Shown: one piece after another, positions 6,749 to 57,762 of the stretch
Position numbering within the stretch: position 1 is the first letter of the stretch
How the letters are laid out: each line of letters begins with the position of its first letter
NCBI GenBank assembly: GCA_900114805.1
Contig: FOZN01000003.1
Coordinates: 124,001-188,000, forward strand
DNA length: 64,000 nt
From: Agrococcus baldri
GTDB taxonomy: Bacteria > Actinomycetota > Actinomycetes > Actinomycetales > Microbacteriaceae
Direction of reading: 5' to 3'
Program-made: the position numbers and the translations under genes
The notes under the pieces: generated by a model
What the model was told of the DNA's origin: nothing
The model's input: the letters and a program-made list of their open reading frames with translations, nothing else
Databases searched by the model: none

Positions 6749-6783
6749 CGCGCACATCCCTAGGTCGTCCGCGACCGCATGAC

Positions 6784-6802
6784 TAGCCTGGAGCCGAAGG
6801 AG
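6784..6802 (+). promoter_or_regulatory. -10 box and ribosome-binding site of the ketogluconate operon
   Basis: TAGCCT (6784-6789) and AAGGAG (6797-6802) precede the ATG at 6808. GGTCG/CGACC half-sites at 6763-6776 lie where a -35 box or operator would be. Confidence 0.4.
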
Positions 6803-6807
6803 CACCC

Positions 6808-8684: not shown

Positions 8685-8726
8685 CGCATCGCGGGCCGAA
8701 TCGGCCGGCAGCAGGAGGAGGAAGCC

Positions 8727-9788
8727 ATGAGCGAGAACCTGGCGCTGGTCGCCCATGCCAAGGAGGACGTGCGCGTCGAGGGTCTGCCGGAGCCGGCACC
8801 GGCGCCGGACGAGGCCGTCGTCGCGATCGCCTACGGCGGCATCTGCGGCTCCGACCTGCACTACTGGCTGCACGGCGCAGCCGGCCAGTCGATCCTGCGC
8901 GAGCCCATGGTGCTCGGGCACGAGATCGTCGGCACGGTGCTCGCCGCCGCCGCCGACGGCAGCGGGCCGGCGGCCGGCACGCGCGTGGCCGTGCACCCCG
9001 CCACCGAGGGCGACGACGGCACGGCACCGTACCCATCCGATCGCCCCAACCTCAGCCCCGCGGGCACCTACCTCGGCTCCGCCGCCCGCATGCCGCACAC
9101 GCACGGCGCCTTCGCCAGCCGCGTCGCCCTGCCGAGCCGCATGCTGCGCAGCATCCCCGAGGGGCTCGAGCTGCGCCTGGCCGCGCTCGCCGAGCCCGCC
9201 GCCGTCGCCTGGCACGGCGTCGGCCAGGCGGGCGAGATCACCGGCAGGCGCGTGCTCGTCATCGGCGCCGGCCCGATCGGCGCGCTCGCGATCGCGGTGG
9301 CGAAGCACCACGGTGCGAGCGAGATCATCGCCACCGACCTGCACGCGCACCCGCGCGCACTCGCCGAGCGGCTCGGCGCCACGGCGATGGAAGCGACGGA
9401 TGCGGCGGGCATCGCGAGCGTGCACGCCGACGTCGTCATCGAGTCGTCGGGCACCGTGCCCGGGCTCGCTGCAGCCATCAGCGGCGCTCGCCGCGGCGGC
9501 ACAGTCGTGATGCTCGGCCTGCAGCGTGCCGGCGACATCGGGGTGCCGATGGCCAGCGCGATCACGCGGGAGCTCACGCTCGTCGGCTCGTTCCGCTTCA
9601 ACGACGAGATCGACGAGGTGCTCGCCGCGCTCGCGGACGGCTCGCTCGACGCCGGGCCCGTCATCAGCCACGAGCTGCCGATCGGCGACGGCCTGCGCGC
9701 CCTCGAGCTCGCGCGCGACGCTTCCGTATCCTCGAAGGTGCTGCTGACGTTCCCGGCGGCCGAGCAGGATGAAGGAGCCCAGCCATGA
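8727..9788 (+). CDS. idnD: L-idonate 5-dehydrogenase-like zinc alcohol dehydrogenase
   Basis: Medium-chain dehydrogenase of 353 residues that oxidises L-idonate to 5-ketogluconate with NAD(P)(+). Catalytic-zinc residues are kept: Cys40 in GGICGSD and His65-Glu66 in VLGHEIVG. The cofactor fold is VLVIGAGPIGALAI. DRPNLSPAGTYLGSAA and the MPHTHGAFA segment match idonate dehydrogenases. The loop before it (about residues 88-105, HPATEGDDGTAPYPSD) lacks the four structural-zinc cysteines found in most relatives. A strong GGAGGAGGAAG ribosome-binding site precedes the ATG, and the stop overlaps gntK by ATGA. Confidence 0.85.
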   Translation: MSENLALVAHAKEDVRVEGLPEPAPAPDEAVVAIAYGGICGSDLHYWLHGAAGQSILREPMVLGHEIVGTVLAAAADGSGPAAGTRVAVHPATEGDDGTAPYPSDRPNLSPAGTYLGSAARMPHTHGAFASRVALPSRMLRSIPEGLELRLAALAEPAAVAWHGVGQAGEITGRRVLVIGAGPIGALAIAVAKHHGASEIIATDLHAHPRALAERLGATAMEATDAAGIASVHADVVIESSGTVPGLAAAISGARRGGTVVMLGLQRAGDIGVPMASAITRELTLVGSFRFNDEIDEVLAALADGSLDAGPVISHELPIGDGLRALELARDASVSSKVLLTFPAAEQDEGAQP

Positions 9789-10369
9789 GCGAGACGCGCT
9801 ACCCCTCGATGATCATCATGGGCGTGCAGGGCTCGGGGAAGTCGACCATCGGCGCCGCGCTCGCACAGCGGCTCAACATCGACTTCATCGACGGCGACGA
9901 CCTGCACCCGAGGGCCAACAAGGACAAGATGGCCGGCGGCACCCCGCTCACCGATGAGGATCGGGTGCCGTGGCTCAAGACCATCGGCCAGACCATCGCC
10001 GACGGCACCGCCAAGGGTCGCGTCACCATCGTCGCCTGCTCGGCGCTCAAGCGCTGGTACCGCGAGCTGCTGCGCTCGAGCGATCCCTCGCTCGTCTTCG
10101 TGCACCTGGTGGGCGAGAAGGGGCTGCTGGCCGACCGCCTCGCGCACCGCGATCACGAGTACATGCCCTCGACCCTCCTCGAGAGCCAGATCGACACCCT
10201 CGAGCCGCTGGCCGAGTGGGAGCACGGCATCGCCATCTCCGTCGAGCAGACCCCCGCCGCGATCGTCGACGAGGTCACCCGCATCCTGATGGCCCGCGCG
10301 GCGGGCCGCACCGTCGAGCCCGACCCGGGCACGACGATCACCGGCACGATCGACATCCAGACCGGCTGA
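9785..10369 (+). CDS. gntK: Gluconokinase
   Basis: Phosphorylates D-gluconate to 6-phosphogluconate using ATP. The 194-residue protein has Walker A GVQGSGKST (residues 13-21), the gluconate-site segment DGDDLHPRANKDKMAGG, then DEDRVPWL, CSALKRWYR and the MPSTLLESQ lid motif, all standard for the thermoresistant GntK/IdnK family. A C-terminal tail of about 20 residues (PDPGTTITGTIDIQTG) extends beyond the usual fold. It overlaps idnD by four bases and is followed by gntP, so it links uptake with the pentose phosphate pathway (gnd at 1.1-2.6 kb). Confidence 0.95.
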   Translation: MSETRYPSMIIMGVQGSGKSTIGAALAQRLNIDFIDGDDLHPRANKDKMAGGTPLTDEDRVPWLKTIGQTIADGTAKGRVTIVACSALKRWYRELLRSSDPSLVFVHLVGEKGLLADRLAHRDHEYMPSTLLESQIDTLEPLAEWEHGIAISVEQTPAAIVDEVTRILMARAAGRTVEPDPGTTITGTIDIQTG

Positions 10370-10431
10370 TCCCCGCGCCGCCACCGGCGGCAGCTCCTCC
10401 CTCGCACCGCACGCACAAAGGAGTCAGACCC

Positions 10432-11841
10432 ATGGAAGACCTCGTTCTCAACTGGGACCTCGGGACCGGAGGGCTGCTGCTGCTCGCGGCGGCTTCGATC
10501 GCGTTCCTGCTCGTCCTCATCATGACGTTCAAGATCCACGCCTTCCTGGCGCTGATGATCACGAGCCTGCTGACCGCCGTCGCCGCGGGCATCCCCTTCA
10601 ACCAGCTCATGGCGGCGATCGCCTTCGGCTTCAACCCGACGCTCGGCAGCGTCATGCTGCTGGTCGCGCTGGGCGCGATGCTCGGCCGCATGATCGAGAC
10701 CTCCGGCGGCGCCAGAGTGCTGACGGACAAGCTCATCGAGTGGTTCGGCGAGCAGCGGGCCGCCATGGCCGTCGGCGTCGCGAGCCTGCTGATGGGCTTC
10801 CCGATCTTCTTCGACGCCGGCCTCGTCGTGATGCTGCCGATCATCTACGCGGTCTCGCGCCGACTCGGCGGCTCGCTGCTCACGGTTGCGTTCCCCGCCG
10901 CGCTGGCGTTCAGCAGCATGCACATCTTCGTGCCGCCGCACCCCGGGCCGGTCTCCGCATCCGCGATCCTCGGTGCCGACGTCGGGCTCGTCCTGCTCCT
11001 CGGCCTCGTGGTCGCGCTCCCGGTCTGGTACGTCGTCGGCGTGCTCTTCAGCAAGTGGGTCGCTCGCAGGTACGACGTCGCGGTGCCGTCGATCCTCGGA
11101 GGCCCGTCGGACGATGAGAACGAGATGGAGTCGAACCCTGCGTTCGGCAAGATCATCTTCCTGCTCGTGCTGCCGCTCGTGCTCATCCTGATGAACACGG
11201 GGCTCAACATGTTCGCCTCGACGCAGGAGGACCCGGACGCCTTCAAGGCTGAGCCCGTGATCGCGCTGCTGCGCACCCTCGGCGAGACGCCCATCGCGCT
11301 GCTCATCACGGTGATCGTCTCCATGTGGCTGCTCGGCTGGGGGATGGGCAAGGCCGGCACCCTGATCGAGAAGGTCGCCGACAGCGCGCTCGGACCGATC
11401 GCCTCGGTCGTGCTCGTCACCGGTGCCGGCGGCATGTTCGGAGGCGTGCTGCGCGTCACGGGCATCGGCGACGCGATCGCCGAGTCGCTCAACTCCATCG
11501 GCATGCCGGTCATCGTCGCTGCCTTCCTCATCGCCCAGATCGTCCGCATCGCGCAGGGCTCGGCCACGGTCGCGCTCACCACGGCCGCCTCGCTGATGGC
11601 CGGCGTGGTCGTCGACGGCGGCTTCAACCCGGTCGAGGTCGCCGCGATCGTGCTCGCGACCGCTGCCGGCTCCGTGGGCTTCAGCCACGTGAACGACTCG
11701 GGCTTCTGGCTGGTCAGCAAGTTCTTCGGCATGGATGTGAAGACGACCCTCAAGACCTGGACGGTCGCGCAGGGCCTGATGGCCATCGTCGGCTTCATCA
11801 TCTCGTTCGCGATCTACCTGGTCGGCGGGCTGTTCGGCTAG
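10432..11841 (+). CDS. gntP: GntP-family gluconate/sugar-acid permease
   Basis: A 469-residue, roughly 12-14-helix membrane protein, a proton symporter for gluconate and related sugar acids. Family landmarks include LGAMLGRMIETSGGA, MGFPIFFDAGLVVMLP, FVPPHPGPVSAS and the C-terminal SHVNDSGFWLVSKFF. The ATG has AAAGGAG (10417-10423) eight bases upstream. It is the last gene of the operon and is followed by two strong hairpins. Substrate assignment to gluconate or idonate rests on the kinase and dehydrogenases encoded directly upstream. Confidence 0.93.
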   Translation: MEDLVLNWDLGTGGLLLLAAASIAFLLVLIMTFKIHAFLALMITSLLTAVAAGIPFNQLMAAIAFGFNPTLGSVMLLVALGAMLGRMIETSGGARVLTDKLIEWFGEQRAAMAVGVASLLMGFPIFFDAGLVVMLPIIYAVSRRLGGSLLTVAFPAALAFSSMHIFVPPHPGPVSASAILGADVGLVLLLGLVVALPVWYVVGVLFSKWVARRYDVAVPSILGGPSDDENEMESNPAFGKIIFLLVLPLVLILMNTGLNMFASTQEDPDAFKAEPVIALLRTLGETPIALLITVIVSMWLLGWGMGKAGTLIEKVADSALGPIASVVLVTGAGGMFGGVLRVTGIGDAIAESLNSIGMPVIVAAFLIAQIVRIAQGSATVALTTAASLMAGVVVDGGFNPVEVAAIVLATAAGSVGFSHVNDSGFWLVSKFFGMDVKTTLKTWTVAQGLMAIVGFIISFAIYLVGGLFG

Positions 11842-44326: not shown

Positions 44327-44899
44327 GTGACCACTCGCGATGAGATCCTCCAGGCCGCGCTTGAGCGCTTCGCCCGCTACGGCTACCTCGGCAGCTCGAT
44401 CCAGCAGATCGCCGACGACGTCGGCACCTCGAAGTCGTCGGTGCTCTACCACTTCGACTCGAAGGAAGCGCTGCTCGAGGCCGCGATGCAGCCGACCATG
44501 GACGCGCTGAGCGCGCTCATCGACGCGCTGCCCGCCGCCAAGGACGACAAGGTCGCCGCCGCCCCCGCACTCGTCACCCGCTTCGTCGACACGCTCATGG
44601 CGCACAGCGCCGCCGTGTCGATCTTCGTCACGCAGCGCGGCGCCCTGCAGGAGGTGCCCGCGATCGTGCGCGGCAACGCGATCGTCGACACCATCGCCTC
44701 GACCCTGGTGCTCGAGGCGCCCACCACGCGCAGCCTCACGCGGCTCTCGATCGGCCTCGCCGGCGTCGCGTTCATCCTCGCCGACGCGGTCGACACGACC
44801 CATGAGCACCCCAGCCCGGAGGAGATGCGCGAGATCTTCATCGACACGCTGCTCGAGCTGTGCATGCCCGAGGCCGTCGCCGCCGGAGAGGACGCCTGA
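44327..44899 (+). CDS. TetR-family repressor of the MMPL operon
   Basis: A 190-residue regulator. The helix-turn-helix is LGSSIQQIADDVGTSKSSVLYHFDSKEALL; the remaining helices form the ligand domain. Two palindromic operators sit on its own promoter, so it very likely represses itself and the two membrane-protein genes after it. Its TGA overlaps the MMPL ATG. The ligand is probably the compound or lipid that the transporter handles. Confidence 0.93.
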   Translation: MTTRDEILQAALERFARYGYLGSSIQQIADDVGTSKSSVLYHFDSKEALLEAAMQPTMDALSALIDALPAAKDDKVAAAPALVTRFVDTLMAHSAAVSIFVTQRGALQEVPAIVRGNAIVDTIASTLVLEAPTTRSLTRLSIGLAGVAFILADAVDTTHEHPSPEEMREIFIDTLLELCMPEAVAAGEDA

Positions 44900-47877
44900 T
44901 GGCCACCTGGCTCTCGCGGGTCGGCGCCGCATCCATGCGCCGCGCCTGGTTCGTCATCATCGCCTGGGTGATCGCCCTCGCCGGCGTGCTCGGCGGCGCG
45001 TTCGCGCTCGGTCCGAACATGCAGGAGTCGTTCGACATCCCCGGCACCGAGTCGCAGGAGGCGCTCGACCACCTCGGCAGCGTCTTCCCGCAAGTCGCGG
45101 GCAGCTCGGTGCAGGTCGTGCTCTCCGCCGATGGCGGCATCGAGGCGCACCGCGACGCCATCGAGCGGCAGGCCGAGGCGATCGGCGACATCGACCTGGT
45201 GGCGCAGGCGGTCGACCCGTGGAGCGAGTTCGCGAACGACCAGATCTCCGCCGACGGCACGGTCGCGTACACGCTCGTGCAGTTCGAGCCCACCGACGGC
45301 GCGAAGCCGACGACCCTCGACGAGGTGGTGGCGACGGCGGATGCGCTGCGCGCGTCGGGCGTGCAGGTCGAGTTCGGGGGTCAGGTCTTCCAGTCGCAGT
45401 CGGTCGGCGTCACCATCGTCGAGGTGTTCGGCGTGGTCTTCGCCGGCGTGGTGCTGTTCGTCACGTTCTGGTCGCTGCTGACCGCCGGCATGCCGCTGCT
45501 GACCGCGCTCGTCGGGGTCGGCATCACCATGGGCGGCGTGCTGGGCGCCTCGGCGCTGGTCACCGTCTCGAACTCTGCGCCGCTGATGGCGCTGATGATC
45601 GGGCTCGCCGTCGGCATCGACTACGCGCTGTTCATCCTCTCCCGGCACCGCTCGCAGCTGGCGCGCGGCATGGGCGTGATCGCCTCGGGCTCGCTCGCCG
45701 TCGGCACCTCGGGCACGGCGGTGGTCTTCGCCGGCATCACGGTGATCGTGGCGCTCGTGGGCCTGCTGATCGTGAACATCCCGTTCCTGTCGGTGATGGC
45801 GATCGGCGCCGCCGGCTCGGTGGCGGTCGCCATCGCCGCGGCCACCACCCTGCTGCCGGCGATCATGGCGCTCGCGGGCGAGCGGCTGCGGCCGAAGGCC
45901 GGCGGCCGCGCGCACCGGCTGGCGCTGCGCGACGTCGACGCGGAGCCGACGCTCGGCATGCGCTGGGTCACCGCCGTCTCGAAGCGTCCGCTGCTGGCCA
46001 TCCTGGGCGTCGTCGCGGTGACGGTCGTGACGGCGCTGCCGGTCGCCTCCCTGCAGCTCGCGCTGCCCGACAACGGCCGCGAGGCCGCCGGCAGCACGCA
46101 GCGCATCGCGAACGACACGCTGCAGGAGGCCTTCGGCGACGGCACCACCGGGCCCTTGGTGGTGATGCTCGACATCACGCAGGTCACCGACGTCATGGGC
46201 ACGATCGACGCGGTCGCCGACGAGCTCGAGCAGGTGCCGGGCGTCGACCGCATCGCCGGCGCCTTCCCCGACGCGACCGTCGACACGGCCATCATCCAGG
46301 TGATCCCGACCACGGGGCCCGCTGACGTCGCGACCGTCGACGTCGTGCACGCACTCCGCGAGCTCGCGCCCGCGATCGAGGCCGAGCACGCCACGCCGAT
46401 GGCGGTCACCGGCATGACCGCCGTGCAGATCGACCTCTCGCAGCGCCTCGCCGACGCGCTCGTGCCCTTCGGCGCCGTGGTCGTCTCGCTCTCGGTGCTG
46501 ATCCTGCTGCTGGTGTTCCGCTCGATCCTGGTGCCGCTCACGGCGGCGCTCGGCTTCGTGCTCTCGGTGCTGGCCGCCTTCGGCGCGACCGTGGCGATCT
46601 TCCAGTGGGGCTGGGCCGCCGAGCTGCTGCACTTCGAGGCCGGTCCGATCCTGTCGTTCATGCCGGTGCTGACGATGTCGGTGCTGTTCGGGCTGGCGAT
46701 GGACTACCAGATGTTCCTCGTCAGCGGCATGCGCGAGGCCTACGCCCACGGGCACCCGTCCGATCCCGACAGGGCGAGGAGCGCCGTGCGGCACGGCTTC
46801 GCCGCCAACGCCCGCGTCGTCACCGCGGCGGCGCTGATCATGTTCTTCGTCTTCTTCGCGTTCGTGCCGGAGGGCATGGCGATGATCAAGGCCATCGCGT
46901 TCGGGCTCGCATTCGGCGTCGCCATCGACGCCTTCCTGGTGCGCATGACGCTCGTGCCGGCGCTCATGACCCTGATGGGCGAGCGCGCCTGGTGGCTGCC
47001 GAGGTGGCTCGACCGCATCCTGCCGAACATGGATGTCGAGGGCGAGAGCCTCGGCCGGCACCGCGCCGCACTGGCCTGGGCGGCGGATGCGGGCGGTCAC
47101 CTCGCGCTCGAGCGGCTGCGCCCCGAGCTGGGGCACGACCTGCCGGGCGAGCAGTCCTGGACGCTCACGGCCCCGCGCGGCGCGGTCGTGCGCCTCGACG
47201 GCTCGTTCGCCGAGCGGCAGCGCCTCGCGCACGCGCTGCTGAGCGACATCGGCGCGACCGGCAGTGCCCACCTCGGCGGCGCCGCGCTGCCGGGCGACGC
47301 GGCGACCATCCGGCAGCGGATGGCGCTGGTCGATCTCGACCTGGCAGGATCCGGCAGCCACCAGGAATCCGCCCACCAGGCCGCGCGGGCAGCGCTCGCA
47401 CTGCGCTCGCCCTTCGCGATCGGCACGGTGCTCGACCGCCGGGCGAGCACCCTTGTCGAGCGCGCCGGCATCGCGGCGGGCACGCCCATCGACGCCGCGG
47501 CGCCCATGGCGCGCCTCGCGCCGCTCGCGCGCGCCGCCGTGCTGCTGGCCATCGCGATGGAGCGCACGCCGAGCTTGCTCTGGATCGACGCCGCCGGCGG
47601 CGCGCCCACCGGCGCGGCCGCGATCGCAGCCCGGCTGGGCGGCGACGACGTGACCATCGTCACGAGCGAGGCATCGCCCGAGGCGCACGGCCGGGCGGCG
47701 ATCGAGCTCGCCCCGGCCAGTGCTGCAGCTGAAGACCGTGCCGCAGCGGAGGACCGCCTGGACGAGCCGCGCGAGGCCGAGGCGGCCCGCGCGGCGGCCG
47801 CAGCCGCATCCGCCCACCCACCGACCGACAGCGACGCCCCCGCCGGCGATCTCGCGACCACGGGAGCAGACCGATGA
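44899..47877 (+). CDS. MMPL family transporter with a degenerate ABC-ATPase-like C-terminal domain
   Basis: A 992-residue membrane protein. Residues 1-715 are a complete MMPL (RND-type) transporter: two blocks of one plus five helices with periplasmic loops (LGPNMQESFDIPGTESQEAL) and the proton-relay motifs MIGLAVGIDYALFIL and SVLFGLAMDYQMFLVSGMRE. Residues about 735-940 resemble an ABC ATPase: RLDGSFAERQRLAHALL in the Walker A place, MARLAPLARAAVLLAIAMERTP like the signature region, LLWIDAAGG like Walker B and IVTSEASPE like the H-loop, but Walker A Gly-Lys, the catalytic Glu and the His are all absent. A low-complexity Ala/Glu tail ends it. ATG overlaps both neighbours. It probably exports a lipid or drug. 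Confidence 0.88.
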   Translation: MATWLSRVGAASMRRAWFVIIAWVIALAGVLGGAFALGPNMQESFDIPGTESQEALDHLGSVFPQVAGSSVQVVLSADGGIEAHRDAIERQAEAIGDIDLVAQAVDPWSEFANDQISADGTVAYTLVQFEPTDGAKPTTLDEVVATADALRASGVQVEFGGQVFQSQSVGVTIVEVFGVVFAGVVLFVTFWSLLTAGMPLLTALVGVGITMGGVLGASALVTVSNSAPLMALMIGLAVGIDYALFILSRHRSQLARGMGVIASGSLAVGTSGTAVVFAGITVIVALVGLLIVNIPFLSVMAIGAAGSVAVAIAAATTLLPAIMALAGERLRPKAGGRAHRLALRDVDAEPTLGMRWVTAVSKRPLLAILGVVAVTVVTALPVASLQLALPDNGREAAGSTQRIANDTLQEAFGDGTTGPLVVMLDITQVTDVMGTIDAVADELEQVPGVDRIAGAFPDATVDTAIIQVIPTTGPADVATVDVVHALRELAPAIEAEHATPMAVTGMTAVQIDLSQRLADALVPFGAVVVSLSVLILLLVFRSILVPLTAALGFVLSVLAAFGATVAIFQWGWAAELLHFEAGPILSFMPVLTMSVLFGLAMDYQMFLVSGMREAYAHGHPSDPDRARSAVRHGFAANARVVTAAALIMFFVFFAFVPEGMAMIKAIAFGLAFGVAIDAFLVRMTLVPALMTLMGERAWWLPRWLDRILPNMDVEGESLGRHRAALAWAADAGGHLALERLRPELGHDLPGEQSWTLTAPRGAVVRLDGSFAERQRLAHALLSDIGATGSAHLGGAALPGDAATIRQRMALVDLDLAGSGSHQESAHQAARAALALRSPFAIGTVLDRRASTLVERAGIAAGTPIDAAAPMARLAPLARAAVLLAIAMERTPSLLWIDAAGGAPTGAAAIAARLGGDDVTIVTSEASPEAHGRAAIELAPASAAAEDRAAAEDRLDEPREAEAARAAAAAASAHPPTDSDAPAGDLATTGADR

Positions 47878-50093
47878 GCCCAGTGTCCACTTCCTTCGGG
47901 TTCACGCCCTCTGGGCTGAAGAAGGCCGTCGCCCTGACCGCGGCGGCAGCGACCCCGTTCGCGATCGCCGCGCTCGCCGCCTGGTCGTTCGGGCCGGCCG
48001 CCGACGGCGAGCGCGACGTGCCGGCCGCGGTCGTGAACCTCGACGAGATGCTCACGACCACCGCCGCCGACGGCACCGAATCGAGCATGTTCGCCGGGCG
48101 CCAGGTCGTCACCGACCTGGTCGCCGACGAGGACGACGGCTTCGCCATCCGCATCCTGAACGAGGAGGATGCCGCCGACGCGCTCGCGGCCGGCGAGGTG
48201 CAGGCGATCGTCACGATCCCCGCCGACTTCTCGCAGCGGGTGCTGAGCCTGCAGGGCGAGGAGCCGCAGCAGGCGGGCATCCGCATCGTCACCGACGCGA
48301 GCTCCAGCGGGCTCGCGACCAGCCTCGCGACCGAGACCGGGGAGGCGATCATGAACTCATTCGGCGACATGGTCACGAACGGCTTCATCTCGGGCATCTA
48401 CGGCGGCATGGGTACGATCGCAGAGCAGCTCGGTGCCGCGGCGGACGGCGGGGATGCGCTGGGGGCTGGAGGCGCGGACCTCGCCTCCGGCCTGGGCGAC
48501 CTCGCCGGGGGCATCGACCAGCTCGCCGACGGCGCGGGGCAGTCGCAGGACGGCGCTGCGCAGCTCGCGGACGGCGGGCAGCAGCTCGCCGCCGGGCTCG
48601 GCACCGCGCAGGGCGGCATCGGGCAGCTCGCCGACGGCTCGGCGCAGCTGAGCGACGGCGTCGACCAGTACACCGGCGGCGTCGACCAGCTCGCCGGTGG
48701 TGCCGCGCAGCTGAGCGACGGCGTCGCGCAGTACACCGCCGGCGTCGACCGGTTCGCCGCCGGTGTGCAGCAGGCGACCTCGCAGATCTCTGCAGGGCTC
48801 GACGAAGCGGTCGCGGCCGGCGGCATCGGCCAGCTCGAGACCGCCATCGGGCAGTCGAGCACGGGCGCGGCACAGCTCCTCGCGGCGCTCGAGGCCGACC
48901 CCGCCACCGACCCGCAGGCGTTGGAGGCCGCGCGGCAGCTGGCCGGCGGGCTCCAGCAGCTGGATCAGCAGGACCTCGCCGGGCAGCTCACCGCCGGCCT
49001 GGGGGAGGCCACCGCCGGCCTCGACCAGCTCGACGCCGGCGCGACGCAGCTGATCGCCGGCGGCGCTGGCCTCCGCGACGGCGCATCGCAGCTCGCCGAC
49101 GGCGCGGCGCAGGTCTCGGCGGGCTCGCCGGCGCTGCGCGAGGGCGCATCGCAGCTCGCCGACGGCCTCGGCCAGCTCGACGGGCAGTTCGGCGCCTCCG
49201 TCTCCGGGGCGCAGCAGCTCGCCGACGGCACCGGCGAGCTCGCCGGCGGCCTCGGCCAGCTGGAATCGGGCGCGGTGCAGCTCGCCGCGGGTGCGCGCTC
49301 GGCCCAGACCGGCGCCGCGCAGCTCGGCGACGGCGGCACCGAGCTGGCCGACGGGCTGCGCGAGGGCATCGCGCAGATGCCGCAGCTCAGCGACGCCGAG
49401 CTCGCGCAGCTCTCCGACGTCGCCACCAACCCGATCGGCTTCGACCTCGCCCAGCAGCACGCCGTGCCGACCGGCGAGGCGCGCGTGGCGACGATCGCCG
49501 TGCCGATCGGCCTGTGGCTCGGCGCGCTCGCGCTGGTGCTCGTGCTGCTGCGCGCCGCCAGGCGCACGCTCGCCTCGGCGGAGTCCGACGGCCGCGTGCT
49601 CATGACCCTGCTGATCCGCTCCGCCTGGGTCGTCGGCCTGCAGGCCGTGCTCGCGACGCTCGTCGTGCACGCCATCGGCGGGGTGGCCTGGGCCTCGGCG
49701 CCGGCGACGCTCGGCATCGCGCTGCTGTTCGCGGCGGTCGCGACCCTGCTGCACGTGGCGCTGGTCGCCTGGTGGGGGCCGGTCGGAGCGGTGGTCTCGC
49801 TCGTGCTGCTGGCGCTGCAGGCGGTCGCCGCCGGCGGACTCGTGCCGCGCGAGGTGCTGGGCGAGGGCTTCGCCGCCATCGCGCCGGCGCTGCCGATGAC
49901 GCACGCGGTCGATGCGCTGCAGGCGGTCTCGGCCGGCGCCGGCGGCGCCGGCGGCGCGGTCGCGATGCTGCTGCTGTTCGCGGGGTTCGGGCTGCTCGCG
50001 GCCTATCTGGCCGTGCGCGCGGCGCGGCGCCGCGAGACGGGCGAGCGCGTCCGCGCGCTCGACGCGCTGGCACCCACCCCAGCCGTGGCTTGA
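47874..50093 (+). CDS. YhgE/Pip family membrane protein with LxxG heptad repeats
   Basis: A 739-residue protein. A start-proximal helix (ALTAAAATPFAIAALAAW) leads to an extracytoplasmic domain with ERDVPAAVVNLDE, typical of YhgE/Pip proteins (phage-infection-protein and ESX/type VII-associated family). About residues 190-500 contain many repeats such as QLADGAAQL and QLAGG, which form long amphipathic helices. The last 220 residues hold five or six helices (VPIGLWLGALALVLVLL; GFAAIAPALPMTHAVDALQAV is the conserved ABC-2-like end). It starts within the MMPL stop (ATGA), so both are coexpressed under TetR control. Confidence 0.88.
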   Translation: MSPVSTSFGFTPSGLKKAVALTAAAATPFAIAALAAWSFGPAADGERDVPAAVVNLDEMLTTTAADGTESSMFAGRQVVTDLVADEDDGFAIRILNEEDAADALAAGEVQAIVTIPADFSQRVLSLQGEEPQQAGIRIVTDASSSGLATSLATETGEAIMNSFGDMVTNGFISGIYGGMGTIAEQLGAAADGGDALGAGGADLASGLGDLAGGIDQLADGAGQSQDGAAQLADGGQQLAAGLGTAQGGIGQLADGSAQLSDGVDQYTGGVDQLAGGAAQLSDGVAQYTAGVDRFAAGVQQATSQISAGLDEAVAAGGIGQLETAIGQSSTGAAQLLAALEADPATDPQALEAARQLAGGLQQLDQQDLAGQLTAGLGEATAGLDQLDAGATQLIAGGAGLRDGASQLADGAAQVSAGSPALREGASQLADGLGQLDGQFGASVSGAQQLADGTGELAGGLGQLESGAVQLAAGARSAQTGAAQLGDGGTELADGLREGIAQMPQLSDAELAQLSDVATNPIGFDLAQQHAVPTGEARVATIAVPIGLWLGALALVLVLLRAARRTLASAESDGRVLMTLLIRSAWVVGLQAVLATLVVHAIGGVAWASAPATLGIALLFAAVATLLHVALVAWWGPVGAVVSLVLLALQAVAAGGLVPREVLGEGFAAIAPALPMTHAVDALQAVSAGAGGAGGAVAMLLLFAGFGLLAAYLAVRAARRRETGERVRALDALAPTPAVA

Positions 50094-50279: not shown

Positions 50280-50735
50280 ATGCGCACGACCTATCGCGTC
50301 CTCGCATTCGTCATCTGCGGCCTCGTCATGCTGCAGGCCGCTTCCCACGCCTGGCTCTCCTCAGGCCTGGCGATCTACATCGGCGAGGGCGGCACCCTCG
50401 ACCCGAACGCGCCGCCCGCCTTCCCCGAGGCGCTGGGCTTCATGATCCACGGCATGAACGGCATGTACGTCATCCCGGTGGTGGCGATCCTGCTGCTGGT
50501 CGTGTCGTTCTTCGCGAAGGTTCCCCGCGGTGTGATGTGGGCGGTGGTCGTGCTCGTGCTCGTCGCGCTGCAGGTGACGCTCGGCATCCTCGGCCACGAG
50601 ATGTCGGCGCTGGCGTTCCTGCACGGCCTGAACGCGCTGCTGCTGTTCGGCGCCGCACTCCTGGCGGGCATGCGGGCGAAGGCGCCGGCACGGGTCGCCG
50701 CCGAGGCGCCCCGCACCTCCGTCGGCGTCGGCTGA
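50280..50735 (+). CDS. Four-helix membrane protein (DUF6220-like), possible heme or copper partner
   Basis: A 151-residue protein with four membrane helices and conserved-looking His at FMIHGMNGMYVI, GILGHEMSALAF and AFLHGLNALLLFGAAL. The pattern of HGxNA in the last helix and an early helix with LVMLQAASHAWL resembles DUF6220 proteins, which are unassigned. GGAGGA is five bases before the ATG. It is followed after 34 bases by a multicopper oxidase. The intramembrane His could bind heme or copper; this is inference. Confidence 0.68.
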   Translation: MRTTYRVLAFVICGLVMLQAASHAWLSSGLAIYIGEGGTLDPNAPPAFPEALGFMIHGMNGMYVIPVVAILLLVVSFFAKVPRGVMWAVVVLVLVALQVTLGILGHEMSALAFLHGLNALLLFGAALLAGMRAKAPARVAAEAPRTSVGVG

Positions 50736-50769
50736 CGCCGGGCCGCCCGGCACAGCGCAGGAGCCTCCG

Positions 50770-52350
50770 GTGCGCCCGACCCGCCGCTCGCGGGCCGGGC
50801 GCATCGGGCGCGTGCTGGCCGGGCTTGTCGCACTCGCCGCGCTCGTCGCCGTCGGCACGATGTGGTGGTCGAGCCTGCGCCCGGCGACCTACTCGGCGCT
50901 CGCGATGGGCGTGCCCGACACCGGCGACGGCACCACCAGCGCCGACGCCGACCACGGGCACGGCGTAGGCGACGACGGGGACGGCCCCGACGCATCCGCC
51001 GTGCCCGTCACCGAGCTGGTCGCCGACCCGCTGCGCGTGCCAGACGTGCACGTCGAGCTCGTCGCGCGCGCCGAGAGCGTGACGCTGCCGTCGGGGGAGT
51101 CGTTCGACGGCATCACGCTCAACGCCGTCACGCCGGGCCCGGAGATCCGCCTGCGGCAGGGGCAGCTGGTGGAGGTGGTGCTGGTCAACGAGTCGGTGGC
51201 GGGCGGCGCGACCCTGCACTGGCACGGCGTCGACGTGCCGGCGGCCATGGACGGCGTCGCCGGGGTGACGCAGGATGCGGTGCTGCCCGGCGAGCGCTTC
51301 GCCTACCGCTTCGTCGCCGAGGACGCCGGCAGCTACTGGTACCACTCGCACCAGGTCTCGCACGAGCAGGTGGTGGCCGGCATGTTCGGGGCGCTGATCG
51401 TCGAGCCGGTCGAGCCGGGTGGCGCCGACGGGCCGGACGGGGCTGATGAGCCGGGCGATCCCGATGAGCCGGACGAGCCAGGCGGCACCGCATCCGACGC
51501 CGTCGCGCTGCTGCACACCTACCCGGGCACCTCACGCACGCTCAACGGCACGGCCGGCGAGGTGCGGCACGAGGCAGGGCCGGGGGATGCGGTGCGGGTG
51601 CGCGTCGCCAACACCGACAGCACCCCGACCGCGGTCTGGGTGAGCGGCGGACCCTTCCGCGTGCTCGCGGTGGACGGCACCGAACTGCACGGGCCGACCC
51701 CGCTCGAGCGGCAGAGGCTGCAGGTCAGCGCTGGAGGACGCATCGACCTCGAGGTGACGGTGCCGGCCTCCGGAGCCGTGCGCGTGCAGGCGCTCGGCGT
51801 CTCGCTGCTCGTCGGCCCGGCGGATGCCGAGGCCCCGACGGTCCCCGCGCCCGCCGAGCTCGTCGACCTGCTGCACTACGGCACCCTGGCGCCGCTCGGC
51901 TTCGACCCGACGCGGCCCGACCGGAGCTTCGCCTACGACATCGGCCGCGCTCCCGGCTTCCTCGCCGGCGTGCCCGGCATCTGGTGGACCATCAACGGGC
52001 GGATGGGCGACGACGTGCCGATGTACATGGTGCGGGAGGGCGACGTGGTGGAGATGCGCATCACCAACGGCTCTGGCGAGGTGCACCCGATGCACCTGCA
52101 CGGTCACCACGTCGTGGTGCTCGCGCGCGACGGGGTCGCTGCCACCGGGAGCCCGTGGTGGGTGGACTCGCTCGACGTCGGCCACGGCGAGAGCTACGAC
52201 GTCGCCTTCGTCGCCGACAACCCCGGCATCTGGATGGACCACTGCCACACGCTGCCGCACGCGGTTGAGGGGCTCGTGACGCACCTCATGTACGAGGGCG
52301 TGACGACGCCGTTCCTGCTCGGGCGGGGCTCCGGGAACGAGCCGGAGTAG
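50770..52350 (+). CDS. Membrane-anchored multicopper oxidase
   Basis: A 526-residue oxidase with an N-terminal membrane helix. Copper ligands are visible in the four canonical blocks: HWHG (about residue 152), WYHSH (residue 193), HPMHLHGHHV and HCHTLPHAVEGL near the end, giving a complete type 1 and trinuclear centre. Before the cupredoxin domains is an Asp/Gly/His-rich linker (ADADHGHGVGDDGDGPD), and an acidic Pro/Asp/Gly insert (residues about 215-240, PDGADEPGDPDEPDEPGG) separates domains 1 and 2. It probably oxidises Cu(I) or phenolics outside the membrane. GTG with AGGAG upstream. Confidence 0.9.
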   Translation: MRPTRRSRAGRIGRVLAGLVALAALVAVGTMWWSSLRPATYSALAMGVPDTGDGTTSADADHGHGVGDDGDGPDASAVPVTELVADPLRVPDVHVELVARAESVTLPSGESFDGITLNAVTPGPEIRLRQGQLVEVVLVNESVAGGATLHWHGVDVPAAMDGVAGVTQDAVLPGERFAYRFVAEDAGSYWYHSHQVSHEQVVAGMFGALIVEPVEPGGADGPDGADEPGDPDEPDEPGGTASDAVALLHTYPGTSRTLNGTAGEVRHEAGPGDAVRVRVANTDSTPTAVWVSGGPFRVLAVDGTELHGPTPLERQRLQVSAGGRIDLEVTVPASGAVRVQALGVSLLVGPADAEAPTVPAPAELVDLLHYGTLAPLGFDPTRPDRSFAYDIGRAPGFLAGVPGIWWTINGRMGDDVPMYMVREGDVVEMRITNGSGEVHPMHLHGHHVVVLARDGVAATGSPWWVDSLDVGHGESYDVAFVADNPGIWMDHCHTLPHAVEGLVTHLMYEGVTTPFLLGRGSGNEPE

Positions 52351-53103: not shown

Positions 53104-54186
53104 GTGCCGACCACCTCTGCCATCGCCGCCGTCGGCACCCATCTCCCGCAGCGCATCCGCACGACCGAGCAGACCGAGCGCCGGCTGCGCGACGAGAACC
53201 CCGGCGTGGCGCTGCCGGTCGGGCTGATCCGGCGCATGACCGGCGTCGACCGGGTGCACGAGCGCGAGGAGGGCCAGCAGGCCTCCGATCTCGCGGTCGC
53301 GGCCGCCCGCGAGGCGCTCGCGGCATCGCCGGAGCCGGTCGACCTGCTCATCTTCGCGAGCGCTAGCCAGGATCTCATCGAGCCCGCCACCAGCCACATC
53401 GTGAACGACAAACTGGGCCTGGGCGTGCCGGTGTTCGACGTCAAGAACGCCTGCAACTCGGTGCTCAACGCTATGCAGGTCGCGCACGCCATGATCGTCA
53501 GCGGCCAGGCCCGGCGGGTGCTCATCGCCAGCGGCGAGACACCGACGAGCGCGGTGCGCTGGCGGGTCGCCGACCGCCACCAGTTCGTGCGCTCGTTCCC
53601 CGGCTACACGATGAGCGATGCGGGCGCCGCGCTCATCCTCGAGGCGACGGATGCGTCGGCACGGCCGGGCGGCGCCGGTTCCGCGGGCGCCGGTGCCGTG
53701 AGTGCTGATCCGGTGGGTGCCGACCGTGCCGCGGCCGACACCGGCATCGTCGAGATGGCTTTCTCCGCTGCCAGCCACCACTGGTCGATCGGCACGCTGC
53801 CCATGGGCGGCTCGATGCGACCGCGCGACCCCGAGGCCACCTACTTCGACATCGACGGCCGCGGCCTGCAGCGGGCATTCCTGGCGCTCGGGCCAGAGCT
53901 CGTCACCGGGCTGCTGGCGCGCAGCGGCATCGCGCTAGCCGACCTCGACCTCGTGCTCATGCACCAGGTGGCCGAGCCGCACCTCGGCCCGATCGCCGAC
54001 CGGCTGGGCCTCGGCGTCGAGATGATCCTGCCGACGGTCGCGCAGCACGGCAACCTCGCCTCGGCGACCCTGCCGATCCAGCTGCGCACGGCGCTCGATC
54101 AGGGACTCGTCGGGCCGGGCAGCCTCCTGCTGCTGGTCGGCCTCGCCGGCGGCATCAGCCTGGGCGCCGCGGTGGTGCGGCTGTGA
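53104..54186 (+). CDS. 3-oxoacyl-ACP synthase III family protein, OleA-like
   Basis: Thiolase-fold condensing enzyme of 360 residues. The catalytic triad of the family is present: Cys117 in KNACNSVLNA, His287 in LMHQVAEPHL and Asn317 in AQHGNLASATLP. Sequence context around these residues and a charged loop of about 30 Ala/Gly residues (near residue 190) differ from FabH. OleA-type enzymes condense two acyl-CoAs head to head to beta-keto acids. GTG is seven bases from a TACGCT -10 box. It is the first gene of a four-gene overlapping operon. Confidence 0.88.
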   Translation: MPTTSAIAAVGTHLPQRIRTTEQTERRLRDENPGVALPVGLIRRMTGVDRVHEREEGQQASDLAVAAAREALAASPEPVDLLIFASASQDLIEPATSHIVNDKLGLGVPVFDVKNACNSVLNAMQVAHAMIVSGQARRVLIASGETPTSAVRWRVADRHQFVRSFPGYTMSDAGAALILEATDASARPGGAGSAGAGAVSADPVGADRAAADTGIVEMAFSAASHHWSIGTLPMGGSMRPRDPEATYFDIDGRGLQRAFLALGPELVTGLLARSGIALADLDLVLMHQVAEPHLGPIADRLGLGVEMILPTVAQHGNLASATLPIQLRTALDQGLVGPGSLLLLVGLAGGISLGAAVVRL

Positions 54187-55031
54187 GCGGGACGGCTGGT
54201 GCGGCTGTGACCGCGGCGGACGGGGCGCTCCGTCGCGGCGGCCAAGGGCCGACGGATGCGCGGGGCCGGCTCGCGGTCGTCGTCCCGGTCTACGACGAGG
54301 CGCGCGGCATCGCGCCCACGCTGCGGCAGCTGGCGGCGCAGCGCGACGGCGACTTCGACGCGATCTTCGTCGACAACCGCTCCACCGACGGCTCGCGCGC
54401 GGTGATCGAGGCGTTCGCACGCGAGCGCGGGCTCGACCGCTGGCGCGTCATCGACGAGCCGCAGAAGGGCACCGGCGCGGCGGCCGACACCGGCATGCGG
54501 GCGGCGATCGCGGCCGGCGCGACGATGCTCGCGCGCACCGACGCCGACTGCATCCCGCGGCTCGACTGGACTGCACGCATCCGCCACGCCCTCACGCCGA
54601 GGGGCGCGGGCGGCCTGGGGCTCGAGCTCGTCGCGGGCAGCCTCGTGCCCCGCCACGACGAGGGGCTCGGGCCGGTGCTGCGCACGCTGCTGATGGGCGC
54701 GGTGCACGTGGCGGATGGGTTCGGCGTCGTCAGGCCCGACAACAACGGCCCGCAGTTCCACGGCCCGTACGTCATGGCGCCGGGCTGCAACCTGGCGATC
54801 ACCGCGGCGATGTACGTCGCGGCGGGCGGCTTCCCTCGCACCGCGATCGAGGAGCTGCACGAGGATCGCGCGATCGTGAACGCCGTGCGGCGGCTGACCG
54901 GCAACTACGCGCGCCGGCGCGACGTTGTCGTGCGGGGCTCCTCGCGGCGTGTGCAGGCGTGGGGGCTGAAGAACACGCTGCTCTGGTACAAGGATCACGC
55001 GTACCGGCCGGAGCACGTGGACATCCGATGA
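54183..55031 (+). CDS. Family 2 glycosyltransferase
   Basis: A 282-residue GT-A glycosyltransferase: LAVVVPVYDEARGIAPTL, FVDNRSTDGSRAVIE, KGTGAAADTGMRAA, RTDADCIP (DxD metal site) and a C-terminal acceptor segment ending IEELHEDRAIVNAVRR (ED base). No membrane helix is evident. The GTG overlaps the ketosynthase stop and the stop overlaps the P450 ATG. It could glycosylate a lipid or polyketide-like product of the operon; donor and acceptor are unknown. Confidence 0.88.
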   Translation: MSGTAGAAVTAADGALRRGGQGPTDARGRLAVVVPVYDEARGIAPTLRQLAAQRDGDFDAIFVDNRSTDGSRAVIEAFARERGLDRWRVIDEPQKGTGAAADTGMRAAIAAGATMLARTDADCIPRLDWTARIRHALTPRGAGGLGLELVAGSLVPRHDEGLGPVLRTLLMGAVHVADGFGVVRPDNNGPQFHGPYVMAPGCNLAITAAMYVAAGGFPRTAIEELHEDRAIVNAVRRLTGNYARRRDVVVRGSSRRVQAWGLKNTLLWYKDHAYRPEHVDIR

Positions 55032-56209
55032 GCGGGACGGACCGCCGGCGCGGGCTGGCGCTCGCGATGCGCCGCGACGAGCGGCTGATGCGCGCGGTGC
55101 ACCCGATCGGCTACCCGCTGCTGCAGGCGGTGCCGGGGCCGGTGCGGCGGGTGCCGGGCCTGGGCGTGGTGGTGAAGGATGCCGCGCTCGCGCGGCAGGT
55201 GCTGCTCGACGGCGAGGGCTTCTCGAAGCAGGGGCCGGGCGCCTCGAGCGACCTGTGGACGCCGGTGCTCGGCGCCCGGGTGCTCGTGAACATGCACGGC
55301 GAGGACCACCGAGCGCTGCGGCGCCGGCTCGCGCCGATCTTCTCGCCCTCGTTCGTCGAGCCGCTCGTGCAGCAGAGCCTCGGGCCCGGGGCCGCAGCGG
55401 TCGAGCGGCGGCTGCTCGCGGGGGAGCGCGTCGACCTGGCCGCCCATGCGCGGCGGTCGGCGAGCGCCGCCATCGCGCTGCTGGTCGGGCTCGAGCGCGA
55501 GGCCGTCGACGACCGGCTCTTCCGGCAGATCGCCGGCATCACCGGCATGGTGCGGCTCACGCGGCCGACGCTGAGCCCCGCCCAGGTGCGCAGCGCGCGA
55601 GCGGTGCTCGACTCGCTCGGCGAGCACGCGGCCGCCGCCTACCGCGGCGACGAGTCGACCCTGCCGGGGCGGCTGCGCGGGCTCGGCCTCTCGGAGGACG
55701 AGGCGCTGGGCGCCGTGGGCGCCTTCATCCTCACCGGCACCGAGACGATCGCCGCGGCGATCCCGCGCATCGTCGCGCTGCTGGCCGACAGCGGCACCCT
55801 GCGCGAGGCGCGCGATGAGGCCGGCGCCGAGCGGGCGATCGCCGAGGGGCTGCGCTGGACGACGCCGACGCCGGTCATGCTGCGCTCCACGATCGCCGAG
55901 CGCACGGTCGGCGCGCTGCGGGTCGCGCCCGGCGACCGCGTGATCATCGCCACCTACGCGGCCGACCGGGCGGCCGGCGGCTTCGACCCCGCGAGCGACC
56001 GGGCGGCGAGCCTCAAGCAGCTCTGGTTCGGCGCCGGCGCGCACTTCTGCATCGGGGCGCCGCTGGCGATGGCCGAGATCCGGCTGGCGCTCGCGGCCCT
56101 GCGCCGCGTCGAGGCATCGGGCCGTCAGGTGCGTGTCACGGCCCGCACGCCCGCCCGCGGCCAGCTGCTGCCCGGCTATGCACGACTCATCCTGGAGGCC
56201 CGCCCGTGA
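55028..56209 (+). CDS. Cytochrome P450
   Basis: A 393-residue soluble P450. Heme ligand Cys341 lies in FGAGAHFCIGAPLA; the ExxR pair is in EGLRW; the I-helix oxygen site is AFILTGTETIAAAI, a GTET form of the usual AGxET; MHGEDHRALRRRLAPIFS is the C-helix. Such bacterial P450s hydroxylate secondary metabolites or fatty acids. No ferredoxin or reductase gene is adjacent. Overlaps both neighbours (ATGA at the start, GTGA at the end). Confidence 0.93.
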   Translation: MSGTDRRRGLALAMRRDERLMRAVHPIGYPLLQAVPGPVRRVPGLGVVVKDAALARQVLLDGEGFSKQGPGASSDLWTPVLGARVLVNMHGEDHRALRRRLAPIFSPSFVEPLVQQSLGPGAAAVERRLLAGERVDLAAHARRSASAAIALLVGLEREAVDDRLFRQIAGITGMVRLTRPTLSPAQVRSARAVLDSLGEHAAAAYRGDESTLPGRLRGLGLSEDEALGAVGAFILTGTETIAAAIPRIVALLADSGTLREARDEAGAERAIAEGLRWTTPTPVMLRSTIAERTVGALRVAPGDRVIIATYAADRAAGGFDPASDRAASLKQLWFGAGAHFCIGAPLAMAEIRLALAALRRVEASGRQVRVTARTPARGQLLPGYARLILEARP

Positions 56210-57762
56210 GCATGCTCGAGGCCGTCCTGGCCGCCACCCGCGAGCACGCGGCGCTGCCGGCGATCACCGGGGGCGGCCGCACCCTGCACTTCGCGCAGCT
56301 GGGCGAGCGCATCGAGCGCACGGCGACGGGGTTGGCGGATGCCGGCATGCGGCCGGGCGATCGGGTCGCGTTCTCGGTGCGGCCGTCGGTCGACGCCGTG
56401 GTGCTGGCGCTCGCGGTGTGCCGGGCGGGCGGGCAGATCGCCTTCGTCGACCTGGGCGCCGGGCCCGAGCTGCTCGCCGCCAGGCTGGCGCTCGCGCAGC
56501 CGCAGTGGACGGCCGCCGAGTCGCTGCTGCACCTGGTCTCCGCCCCGGGGCTGCGCCGCATCGCCCGCAGCCGCGGCGTCGACCTGCCCGCCTACCGCGA
56601 GCTGCTGCCGAACGCCCGCCACATCGTCACCGGCCGCGCGCTGCCCGGCGCGCCGCGCGGCGCGCTGCGGCTCGACCGGCTGGCGCGCACCGCACCGCGC
56701 GCGCTGCCGCCGGCAGACCCCGCCGCCGATGCGCTGCTCATCTTCACCTCCGGCACCACCGGTGAGCCCAAGACCGTGCTGCACACGCTCGCCTCCCTCG
56801 GCGCAGGCCTCGCCGACATCCGTGCCGGCCTCGGGCTCGAGCCCGGGCTGCGCGTGCTCACCGACCAGCTCATGATCGGCCTGCCGGCGCTCATCGCCGG
56901 CAGCCACTGGACGCTGCCGCCTGCCGGTCTCGACCCGGCCGCCTCGCCCGCGCGGTACCTGCCGCTGCTGGGCGCCGCCGACGCGATCTTCGCCTCTCCC
57001 GCAGGCCTCGACGCCATGCTCCGCGAGCTCGACGAGCGGCGGGCCGCCGGCGCCGAGCGGTACGAGAGCGCCGTGCGCCTGATCGCGCTGGGCGGCGCGC
57101 CGGTGCTGCCGCCCCTCATCGAGCGCGCGCTGACGCGCTTCCCCGACGCACGCATCCGCTGCGTGTACGGCATGAGCGAGATCCTGCCGGTGGCGATCGC
57201 CGACGGTGCCGAGAAGCTGCACGCGAGCGGCGAGGGCGACTACGTGGGGCGCGTGGCCTCGAGCGTCGATGCCCGCATCGACGACGGCGAGCTGGTGCTG
57301 GCCGGACCCGGCCTGGCCCGCGCGTACGTGCACGAGCTGCCGCGCGAGCTCGGCGAGGTGCGCACGGGCGATCTGGCGCGCATCGACGGCGACCGGCTGA
57401 CGCTGCTGGGTCGCAAGAAGGACATGCTGCTGCGCGGCACCCAGAACATCTACGTCGGCCTGTACGAGCCGGTGATCGCCTCGCTGCCGGGCGTCGCCGA
57501 CGCCGCCATGGTGGGCGTGCCCGACGCGATCGGCGACGACCGCGTCGTGGTCGCGGTGGTGCCCGAGGGTGCACCGGAAGATCTCCCGGCCGACCCTGCG
57601 CATCCGCTGGCCCGACGCGTCGCGGCGGCGCTGCCGGGCCTCATCGACCACGGCGCGCTGCCCGATCTGGTGGTGGCGATCGGCGCGCTGCCCAGGCGGG
57701 GGCGGATGCGCAAGCCCGACCGGGGCGCGCTCGTCGCCCTGGTCGCGCCCCACGTCTCGTAG
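56206..57762 (+). CDS. Acyl-adenylating ligase (AMP-dependent synthetase/ligase, OleC-like)
   Basis: An ANL-family enzyme of 518 residues. The AMP motif is LIFTSGTTGEPKTVLH, then YGMSEILP, TGDLARIDGD and the hinge GRKKDMLLRGTQNIYVGLYE, and the catalytic lysine near the end is in RGRMRKPDRG. In OleA-type pathways the partner ligase OleC forms a beta-lactone. The other two usual partners, OleB hydrolase and OleD reductase, are absent here, so the ligase might instead activate the fatty acid for the ketosynthase. Last gene of the operon, GTGA overlap. Confidence 0.88.
   Translation: MSMLEAVLAATREHAALPAITGGGRTLHFAQLGERIERTATGLADAGMRPGDRVAFSVRPSVDAVVLALAVCRAGGQIAFVDLGAGPELLAARLALAQPQWTAAESLLHLVSAPGLRRIARSRGVDLPAYRELLPNARHIVTGRALPGAPRGALRLDRLARTAPRALPPADPAADALLIFTSGTTGEPKTVLHTLASLGAGLADIRAGLGLEPGLRVLTDQLMIGLPALIAGSHWTLPPAGLDPAASPARYLPLLGAADAIFASPAGLDAMLRELDERRAAGAERYESAVRLIALGGAPVLPPLIERALTRFPDARIRCVYGMSEILPVAIADGAEKLHASGEGDYVGRVASSVDARIDDGELVLAGPGLARAYVHELPRELGEVRTGDLARIDGDRLTLLGRKKDMLLRGTQNIYVGLYEPVIASLPGVADAAMVGVPDAIGDDRVVVAVVPEGAPEDLPADPAHPLARRVAAALPGLIDHGALPDLVVAIGALPRRGRMRKPDRGALVALVAPHVS

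What the first reader, a model, noticed from the sequence alone, without database searches (positions are those of the whole stretch)
53104..57762. Four-gene overlapping operon: OleA-like ketosynthase, glycosyltransferase, P450, acyl ligase
All junctions overlap by four bases, so the products are made together. The ketosynthase has the Cys/His/Asn triad of head-to-head condensing enzymes and the ligase is OleC-like, but the usual olefin partners OleB and OleD are missing and a P450 and glycosyltransferase take their place. No acyl carrier protein, thioesterase or exporter is in the operon. The set suggests an oxidised and glycosylated product from two acyl chains, for example a modified beta-lactone or long-chain ketone lipid. 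I know of no described pathway with exactly this four-gene order; that is recollection, not a search.
Basis: partly seen in the sequence, partly recalled or inferred. Interest (0 to 1): 0.8.

Follow-up and report, generated by a model that had tools for sequence, protein, structure and literature searches.

The report
OleA-type glycolipid cassette lacking its reductase
An Agrococcus bacterium carries four tightly packed genes that probably join two fatty acids head to head and then oxidise and sugar-coat the product; a five-gene version was described in 2020, and here the reductase gene is missing, perhaps because a second operon in the same genome can supply it.

Summary
In detail: four genes at 53104-57762 (+), each overlapping the next by 4 bases. 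The ketosynthase (KS) has the catalytic triad plus the OleA-type Glu93 that FabH lacks and lies outside a monophyletic FabH clade; its exact place beside canonical OleA is unresolved. Of 96 related loci, 85 hold all four genes and 78 of these also an OleD-type reductase. The set is not undescribed: PMC7064751 (2020) reports OleA, glycosyltransferase, OleC, P450 and OleD together in Actinoplanes atraurantiacus and proposes a hydroxylated, glycosylated beta-lactone. I found no characterised product. 'OleC-like' is not supported by sequence. New here: this lineage lost the cassette's OleD but keeps an oleA-oleBC-oleD olefin operon elsewhere. All 7 OleD-less genomes tested have canonical oleA with a nearby OleD homologue, against 1 of 5 with a cassette OleD (two independent losses), which suggests a shared reductase. 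Glycosyltransferase and ligase come and go together. Verdict: a real, conserved, previously sketched pathway type in a new OleD-less variant.

The parts
53104..54186 (+). OleA-type ketosynthase (360 aa); Glu93, Cys117, His287, Asn317
54183..55031 (+). family-2 glycosyltransferase (282 aa, or 274 aa from 54207), GT-A fold, TDAD (DxD-type) motif at residues 119-122
55028..56209 (+). cytochrome P450 (393 aa); E273xxR276, haem Cys341, TGTET at 236-240
56206..57762 (+). ANL-superfamily acyl ligase (518 aa) with P-loop FTSGTTGEPK and conserved Lys503; not assignable to OleC by sequence

Best explanation
The operon makes a specialised glycolipid that starts like the olefin pathway. Step 1 (inferred from residues and family): the OleA-type ketosynthase condenses two acyl-CoAs head to head to a 2-alkyl-3-oxo acid. 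Step 2 (inferred): an OleD-type reductase gives the 3-hydroxy acid; most related cassettes encode it as the fifth gene, and in this lineage the OleD of the separate olefin operon (G000:C6) would act in trans. Step 3 (inferred): the P450 hydroxylates an alkyl chain and the glycosyltransferase adds a sugar there. Step 4 (inferred, weakest): the ligase activates the carboxylate as acyl-AMP, closing a beta-lactone as OleC does or passing the acyl group to another nucleophile. Shown here: gene anatomy, conserved catalytic residues, conserved linkage, absence of a local OleD, a canonical olefin operon in the same genome, joint presence/absence of GT and ligase, GT-P450 fusion in some relatives. Not shown: any reaction, substrate or product.
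For: Glu, Cys, His and Asn are conserved in at least 93% of 101 KS rows (5 of them second copies of strains already in); the Glu is in 18 of 18 OleA rows and in 0 of the 18 FabH rows aligned. KS mean identity is 31% to 16 canonical OleA, 27% to 30 FabH, and 34-35% to the oleA of two loci with an oleBC-type gene, L244 and L245. All four genes are together in 85 of 96 loci, 78 of these with an OleD-type gene, whose best NCBIfam model in the two tested is OleD, below its cut-off. GT and P450 share one open frame in 4 loci, which suits consecutive steps. GT and ligase are both present (86) or both absent (9) in 95 loci not cut by a contig end. OleD-less genomes G000, G001, G005, G014, G016, G021 and G031 all carry canonical oleA and an OleD homologue; of those with a cassette OleD and known status, canonical oleA is found in G004 and not in G012, G018, G022, G125; Fisher p 0.010. 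The same gene set and pathway were proposed in PMC7064751.
Against: The KS position relative to OleA and FabH is not resolved: AU p 0.233 and 0.235 for the two alternative groupings. Model scores do not separate OleA-type (138 bits) from FabH-type (143 bits), both far below cut-off. The ligase does not look like OleC. The Actinoplanes OleA hydrolysed an ester in vivo, but the recovered protein condensed none of the acyl-CoAs tested. The OleD pattern rests on two losses, so the Fisher value overstates it; G004 has both OleDs; G022 is 86% complete, G021 has 8% contamination; G125's miss is inferred, its handle falling in the range of the sample. Two more OleD-less loci, L013 and L041, have unknown canonical status. 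Three paired changes of GT and ligase cannot reach significance (p 0.25). Donor sugar and P450 site are unknown.
Confidence: 0.45

Rival explanations
1. The ligase is an ordinary fatty acyl-CoA (or acyl-AMP) ligase that feeds the ketosynthase. With no OleD step the 3-oxo acid decarboxylates to a long-chain ketone, which the P450 hydroxylates and the GT glycosylates: a glycosyl-ketone lipid, no beta-lactone.
For: The ligase scores higher with general acyl-CoA ligase models than with the OleC model; its GRKKDM(L/I)xRG stretch differs from OleC's GRxxHV-type stretch (that the former is typical of CoA ligases is recalled); no OleD in the operon.
Against: 78 of 85 four-gene loci keep an OleD-type gene, and among genomes tested it is missing only where a second OleD exists. 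Eight loci keep KS and cassette P450 without the ligase, so feeding the KS is not its obligatory role.
Confidence: 0.25
2. The ketosynthase is a KAS III-like enzyme that condenses an acyl group with an unusual partner (for example a carrier-bound or aryl acid) and is not a head-to-head enzyme.
For: Unresolved deep placement; ten Streptomyces relatives share a same-strand set of genes upstream that in L016, the one annotated, includes an ACP and a second AMP-binding protein; the Actinoplanes OleA gave no Claisen product with acyl-CoA.
Against: Glu, NAC and HQV motifs of OleA are conserved; an OleD-type reductase is the usual operon partner.
Confidence: 0.2
3. The operon is decaying in this Agrococcus lineage after losing OleD (the second P450 of many relatives is also absent) and makes nothing.
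For: Neither an OleD nor a second P450 match is in the window.
Against: All four genes are open and keep their catalytic residues and 4-base overlaps, and the six OleD-less Agrococcus genomes all keep the four genes.
Confidence: 0.07

Closest known systems
Actinoplanes atraurantiacus OleA / glycosyltransferase / OleC / P450 / OleD gene region (mBio 2020, PMC7064751, text on Fig. 6)
   Same: Same enzyme classes in one cluster, no oleB. A relative of the same family, Micromonosporaceae (Catellatospora coxensis, L034), carries KS-GT-P450-LIG-OleD in this order.
   Different: The window lacks OleD locally; the Actinoplanes sequence itself could not be compared here; the paper's product is a proposal.
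Canonical olefin operon oleABCD, here oleA-oleBC-oleD in the same genome (L122:5915-10726)
   Same: OleA-type condensing enzyme; OleD-type reductase in most relatives of the cassette.
   Different: No OleB; ligase not OleC by sequence; adds P450 and GT; KS is a distinct clade.
beta-lactone clusters with oleACD and no oleB (Streptomyces toxytricini and Nocardia brasiliensis, as named in PMC7064751)
   Same: OleA-type KS, no oleB, an ANL ligase.
   Different: No local OleD; glycosyltransferase and P450 present; beta-lactone formation unproven. Not compared by sequence.
FabH (KAS III)
   Same: Same superfamily, with active-site Cys, His and Asn; about 27% identity.
   Different: FabH lacks the Glu and the NAC/HQV motifs and forms its own clade.

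Membership tests
OleA (head-to-head condensing thiolase) | Cys/His/Asn catalytic triad | tested here: met
   C117, H287, N317, each in at least 93% of 101 rows
OleA (head-to-head condensing thiolase) | Glu in the EP(S/A) motif, absent from FabH (its catalytic role is recalled from the OleA literature, not from a call) | tested here: met
   Glu93; in 18 of 18 reference OleA rows, 0 of 18 FabH rows aligned
OleA (head-to-head condensing thiolase) | groups with canonical OleA in a tree | tested here: inconclusive
   outside FabH (100/100) and next to the L244/L245 oleA (90/65), but alternatives not rejected, AU p 0.23
OleA (head-to-head condensing thiolase) | Claisen condensation of two acyl-CoAs | not testable with these tools
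   needs an enzyme assay
FabH | in the FabH clade and above the TIGR00747 cut-off | tested here: not met
   115 bits against cut-off 292; FabH one clade without it
OleC beta-lactone synthetase | groups with OleC, or scores with the OleC model as OleC does | tested here: not met
   70 bits; two canonical OleC halves score 263-265, also below the cut-off of 900; own clade, deep branching unresolved at 38/63
OleC beta-lactone synthetase | forms a beta-lactone | not testable with these tools
   needs an enzyme assay
five-gene OleA-GT-OleC-P450-OleD cluster of PMC7064751 | KS, GT, P450 and ANL ligase together, no oleB among them | tested here: met
five-gene OleA-GT-OleC-P450-OleD cluster of PMC7064751 | OleD in the cluster | tested here: not met
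   no OleD match in the window by tblastn, E <= 1
olefin operon oleABCD | oleB (or oleBC) in the operon | tested here: not met
   none among the four genes; oleBC is at L122:7036-9717 in the other operon

The most novel reading that the evidence does not exclude
One OleD reductase serves two pathways: the membrane-olefin operon and a distant operon for an unknown oxidised, glycosylated head-to-head lipid. In the genomes tested, the cassette's own oleD is missing only where the olefin operon supplies one, so two lipid pathways have become enzymatically coupled, and the product is an undescribed class of glycolipid.
Probability: 0.3. Interest if true: 0.65.

Novelty: new variant of a known kind. 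Interest (0 to 1): 0.45.

Why it matters
The cassette occurs across several actinobacterial families but patchily, and I found no characterised product. The reductase-less Agrococcus version gives a simple genetic test of whether enzymes are shared between hydrocarbon and glycolipid pathways. The joint presence and absence of GT and ligase and the GT-P450 fusions help to order the late steps and could guide product discovery.

Tried and rejected
MMPL/ABC-2 membrane proteins as the cassette's exporter: genes of that size stand directly upstream of the KS in L101-L105 and L107 (MMPL homologues clustered in the window and L006-L009), but also at the same place in 5 of the 10 KS-negative Agrococcus genomes examined (G003, G008, G009, G010, G015; 14 of 24 are KS-negative), while G018 and G004 have the KS without them. 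Only the window copies were checked by HMM. DUF6220 + multicopper oxidase as an insertion: a gene pair of matching size sits there in KS-negative G003, G008 and G023, so it looks resident (size and order only). Ligase = OleC: not supported. Fold searches for GT and ligase gave only general GT-A and ANL enzymes and did not show donor or product. Decayed OleD downstream of the ligase: none found. Phylum sample: 1 of 396 genomes, the own one (E <= 1e-50); only about 5 candidates per genome were scored there (6), so both are lower bounds.

Subsets used: KS tree 27 of 101 KS rows, 18 OleA, 18 of 30 FabH; ligase tree 26 of 91 cassette ligases, 18 OleC, 4 own-genome paralogues and one Streptomyces AMP-binding protein (own loci L254-L256 gave no match); canonical ole loci read in 16 of the 71 order genomes with a match, plus G000, G005 and later G031; structure alignments 35 GT and 33 ligase rows of 71 and 72 available.

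Full report
Observation. The four ORFs are as described, with three 4-base overlaps, and belong to the ACP_syn_III, Glycos_transf_2, p450 and AMP-binding families. The own genome (2.90 Mb, 7 contigs) is taken to be an Agrococcus because its nearest named relative is Agrococcus sp. KRD186, whose KS is 94% identical. No listed NCBIfam match of the four reaches its curated cut-off (for the ligase 25 of 89 matches were listed).

Conservation. One search found 212 KS-encoding stretches in one-genome-per-species contigs and kept the best 80. I scored 96 loci: the window, those 80, 4 further Agrococcus loci and 11 of the same order. All four genes are present in 85 of 96; 78 of these 85 also have an OleD-type gene; a second P450 is found in 56 of 96 (54 of the 85), some contigs being cut short. 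A start at the 4-base overlap is available in 69 of 87 (KS/GT), 72 of 82 (GT/P450), 68 of 84 (P450/LIG) and 63 of 78 (LIG/OleD). Among 24 Agrococcus genomes 10 have the KS at E <= 1e-30, and all 10 have the four genes together. In samples, 13 of 297 genomes of the order (E <= 1e-40, own and one same-genus genome included) and 1 of 396 of the phylum (E <= 1e-50, the own one) have it, so it is patchy.

Ketosynthase. Glu93, Cys117, His287 and Asn317 are conserved in at least 93% of 101 rows. The Glu is shared with OleA, while the FabH rows have T or Q there; NAC and HQV motifs also follow OleA. In a tree of 63 rows FabH (18) is one clade without the KS (100/100); the KS clade (27) lies next to the oleA of L244 and L245 (90/65) and apart from 16 other OleA. 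L244 and L245 have an oleBC-type gene next to oleA; the gene after it is OleD-sized but was not tested. AU tests do not reject the two alternative groupings (p 0.233 and 0.235), so 'outside FabH' is firm and 'sister to OleA' is not. Identities: 31% mean to 16 OleA, 27% to 30 FabH, 34.7% and 33.5% to L244 and L245.

Ligase. It has the P-loop and the conserved C-terminal Lys503 and a confident model (mean pLDDT 90.7) whose nearest solved structures are aryl-acid ligases, amide-bond synthetases and MenE. The OleC model gives 70-83 bits for the five cassette ligases scored and 263-265 for two canonical OleC halves. In the tree it is its own clade (100/99); the deep branch is unresolved (38/63). 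I therefore do not call it OleC.

Glycosyltransferase and P450. The GT model is GT-A (mean pLDDT 84.2) and matches diverse family-2 enzymes at TM about 0.5-0.6 by query length, so the donor cannot be named. The P450 keeps ExxR and the haem Cys; its nearest solved relatives are CYP260 enzymes at about 60 bits, so its site is not predictable. GT and P450 share one open frame in L010, L011, L014 and L206 (Pfam finds both domains in L010).

Modules. In the 95 loci not cut by a contig end, GT and ligase are both present in 86 and both absent in 9, with three changes of each on the KS tree that coincide; three pairs cannot reach significance (p 0.25). Seven loci have KS, P450 and OleD only, L013 has KS and P450 only, and L041 the KS with only the second-P450 type (in L207 the OleD match lies about 3.4 kb upstream of the KS). 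This suggests a core of KS, P450 and reductase and a finishing pair of ligase and GT.

Missing OleD. The window has no OleD match. The same genome has a canonical operon at G000:C6 (L122): oleA 5915-6943, oleBC fusion 7036-9717 (alpha/beta-hydrolase plus AMP-binding), oleD 9728-10726. Cassette genomes without a local OleD (G000, G001, G005, G014, G016, G021, and G031 of another family) all have canonical oleA and an OleD homologue; in G000, G005 and G031 the operon was read, in the other four the two matches lie within about 4 kb on one contig and strand. Of five genomes with a local OleD and known status only G004 has canonical oleA; G012, G018, G022 and G125 do not (G125 inferred from its handle lying in the range without a listed match). 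Fisher p is 0.010, or 0.024 without G125, but a four-gene tree of 18 loci gives only two losses, so this is suggestive. In the wider set 8 of 87 loci with 6 kb or more downstream lack OleD, with four changes on the KS tree; two of the 8, L013 and L041, have unknown canonical status.

Prior art. PMC7064751 (passages and sections 9-11 read) reports for Actinoplanes atraurantiacus OleA, a glycosyltransferase, OleC, a P450 and OleD, no candidate oleB in the genome, and proposes condensation, reduction, hydroxylation, glycosylation and beta-lactone closure. [quoted passage not shown] PMC7158056 was searched for terms only: Agrococcus, P450 and glycosyl do not occur in its main text. Ten literature searches listed no title or opening of an abstract that describes a product of this cassette; of the 31 papers only 10 were listed, the other papers were not opened, and only open-licence papers are held.

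Genome context. The cassette lies at a site near an AP_endonuc_2-family gene that has a match in 24 of 24 Agrococcus genomes; ten KS-negative genomes read at that site have other genes there. The divergent methyltransferase gene upstream (52355 to about 53020, -) has no counterpart of that size and strand directly upstream of the KS in L101-L105 and L107.

Noticed in passing
L122:5915-10726 (own genome, G000:C6): Canonical olefin operon oleA-oleBC fusion-oleD in the same genome; canonical oleA in 17 of 24 Agrococcus genomes.
   Followed up: yes
L010:9002-10987, L206:5631-7589 (same open frame also in L011 and L014): Glycosyltransferase and P450 fused into one ORF of about 650-660 aa.
   Followed up: partly
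L016:1-14619 and nine further Streptomyces loci with homologous genes: Cassette after a longer same-strand gene set. In L016, the one annotated: FMO-like (cut), GATase/phosphoribosyltransferase, AMP-binding protein, ACP, DUF6506, second P450, then KS-GT-P450-LIG-OleD, then an AIRS-family protein (in 7 loci). Product unknown to me.
   Followed up: partly
window 44327-50093: 190-aa gene (44327-44899; its family was not tested), MMPL transporter and ABC-2-type membrane protein: a module seen by size at this site in many Agrococcus genomes, variably next to the cassette.
   Followed up: partly
window 50280-52350: DUF6220-like protein (just under the Pfam cut-off) plus multicopper oxidase; a pair of matching size sits at this site in KS-negative G003, G008 and G023.
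   Followed up: partly
window 53104-54186, residues about 187-210 of the KS: Ala/Gly-rich stretch in the window KS; matches in several other genomes skip these residues.
   Followed up: no
G004, G006, G007, G008 AP_endonuc_2 gene near the site: Stop codons reported inside the match; they may simply be read-through at the gene's end.
   Followed up: no
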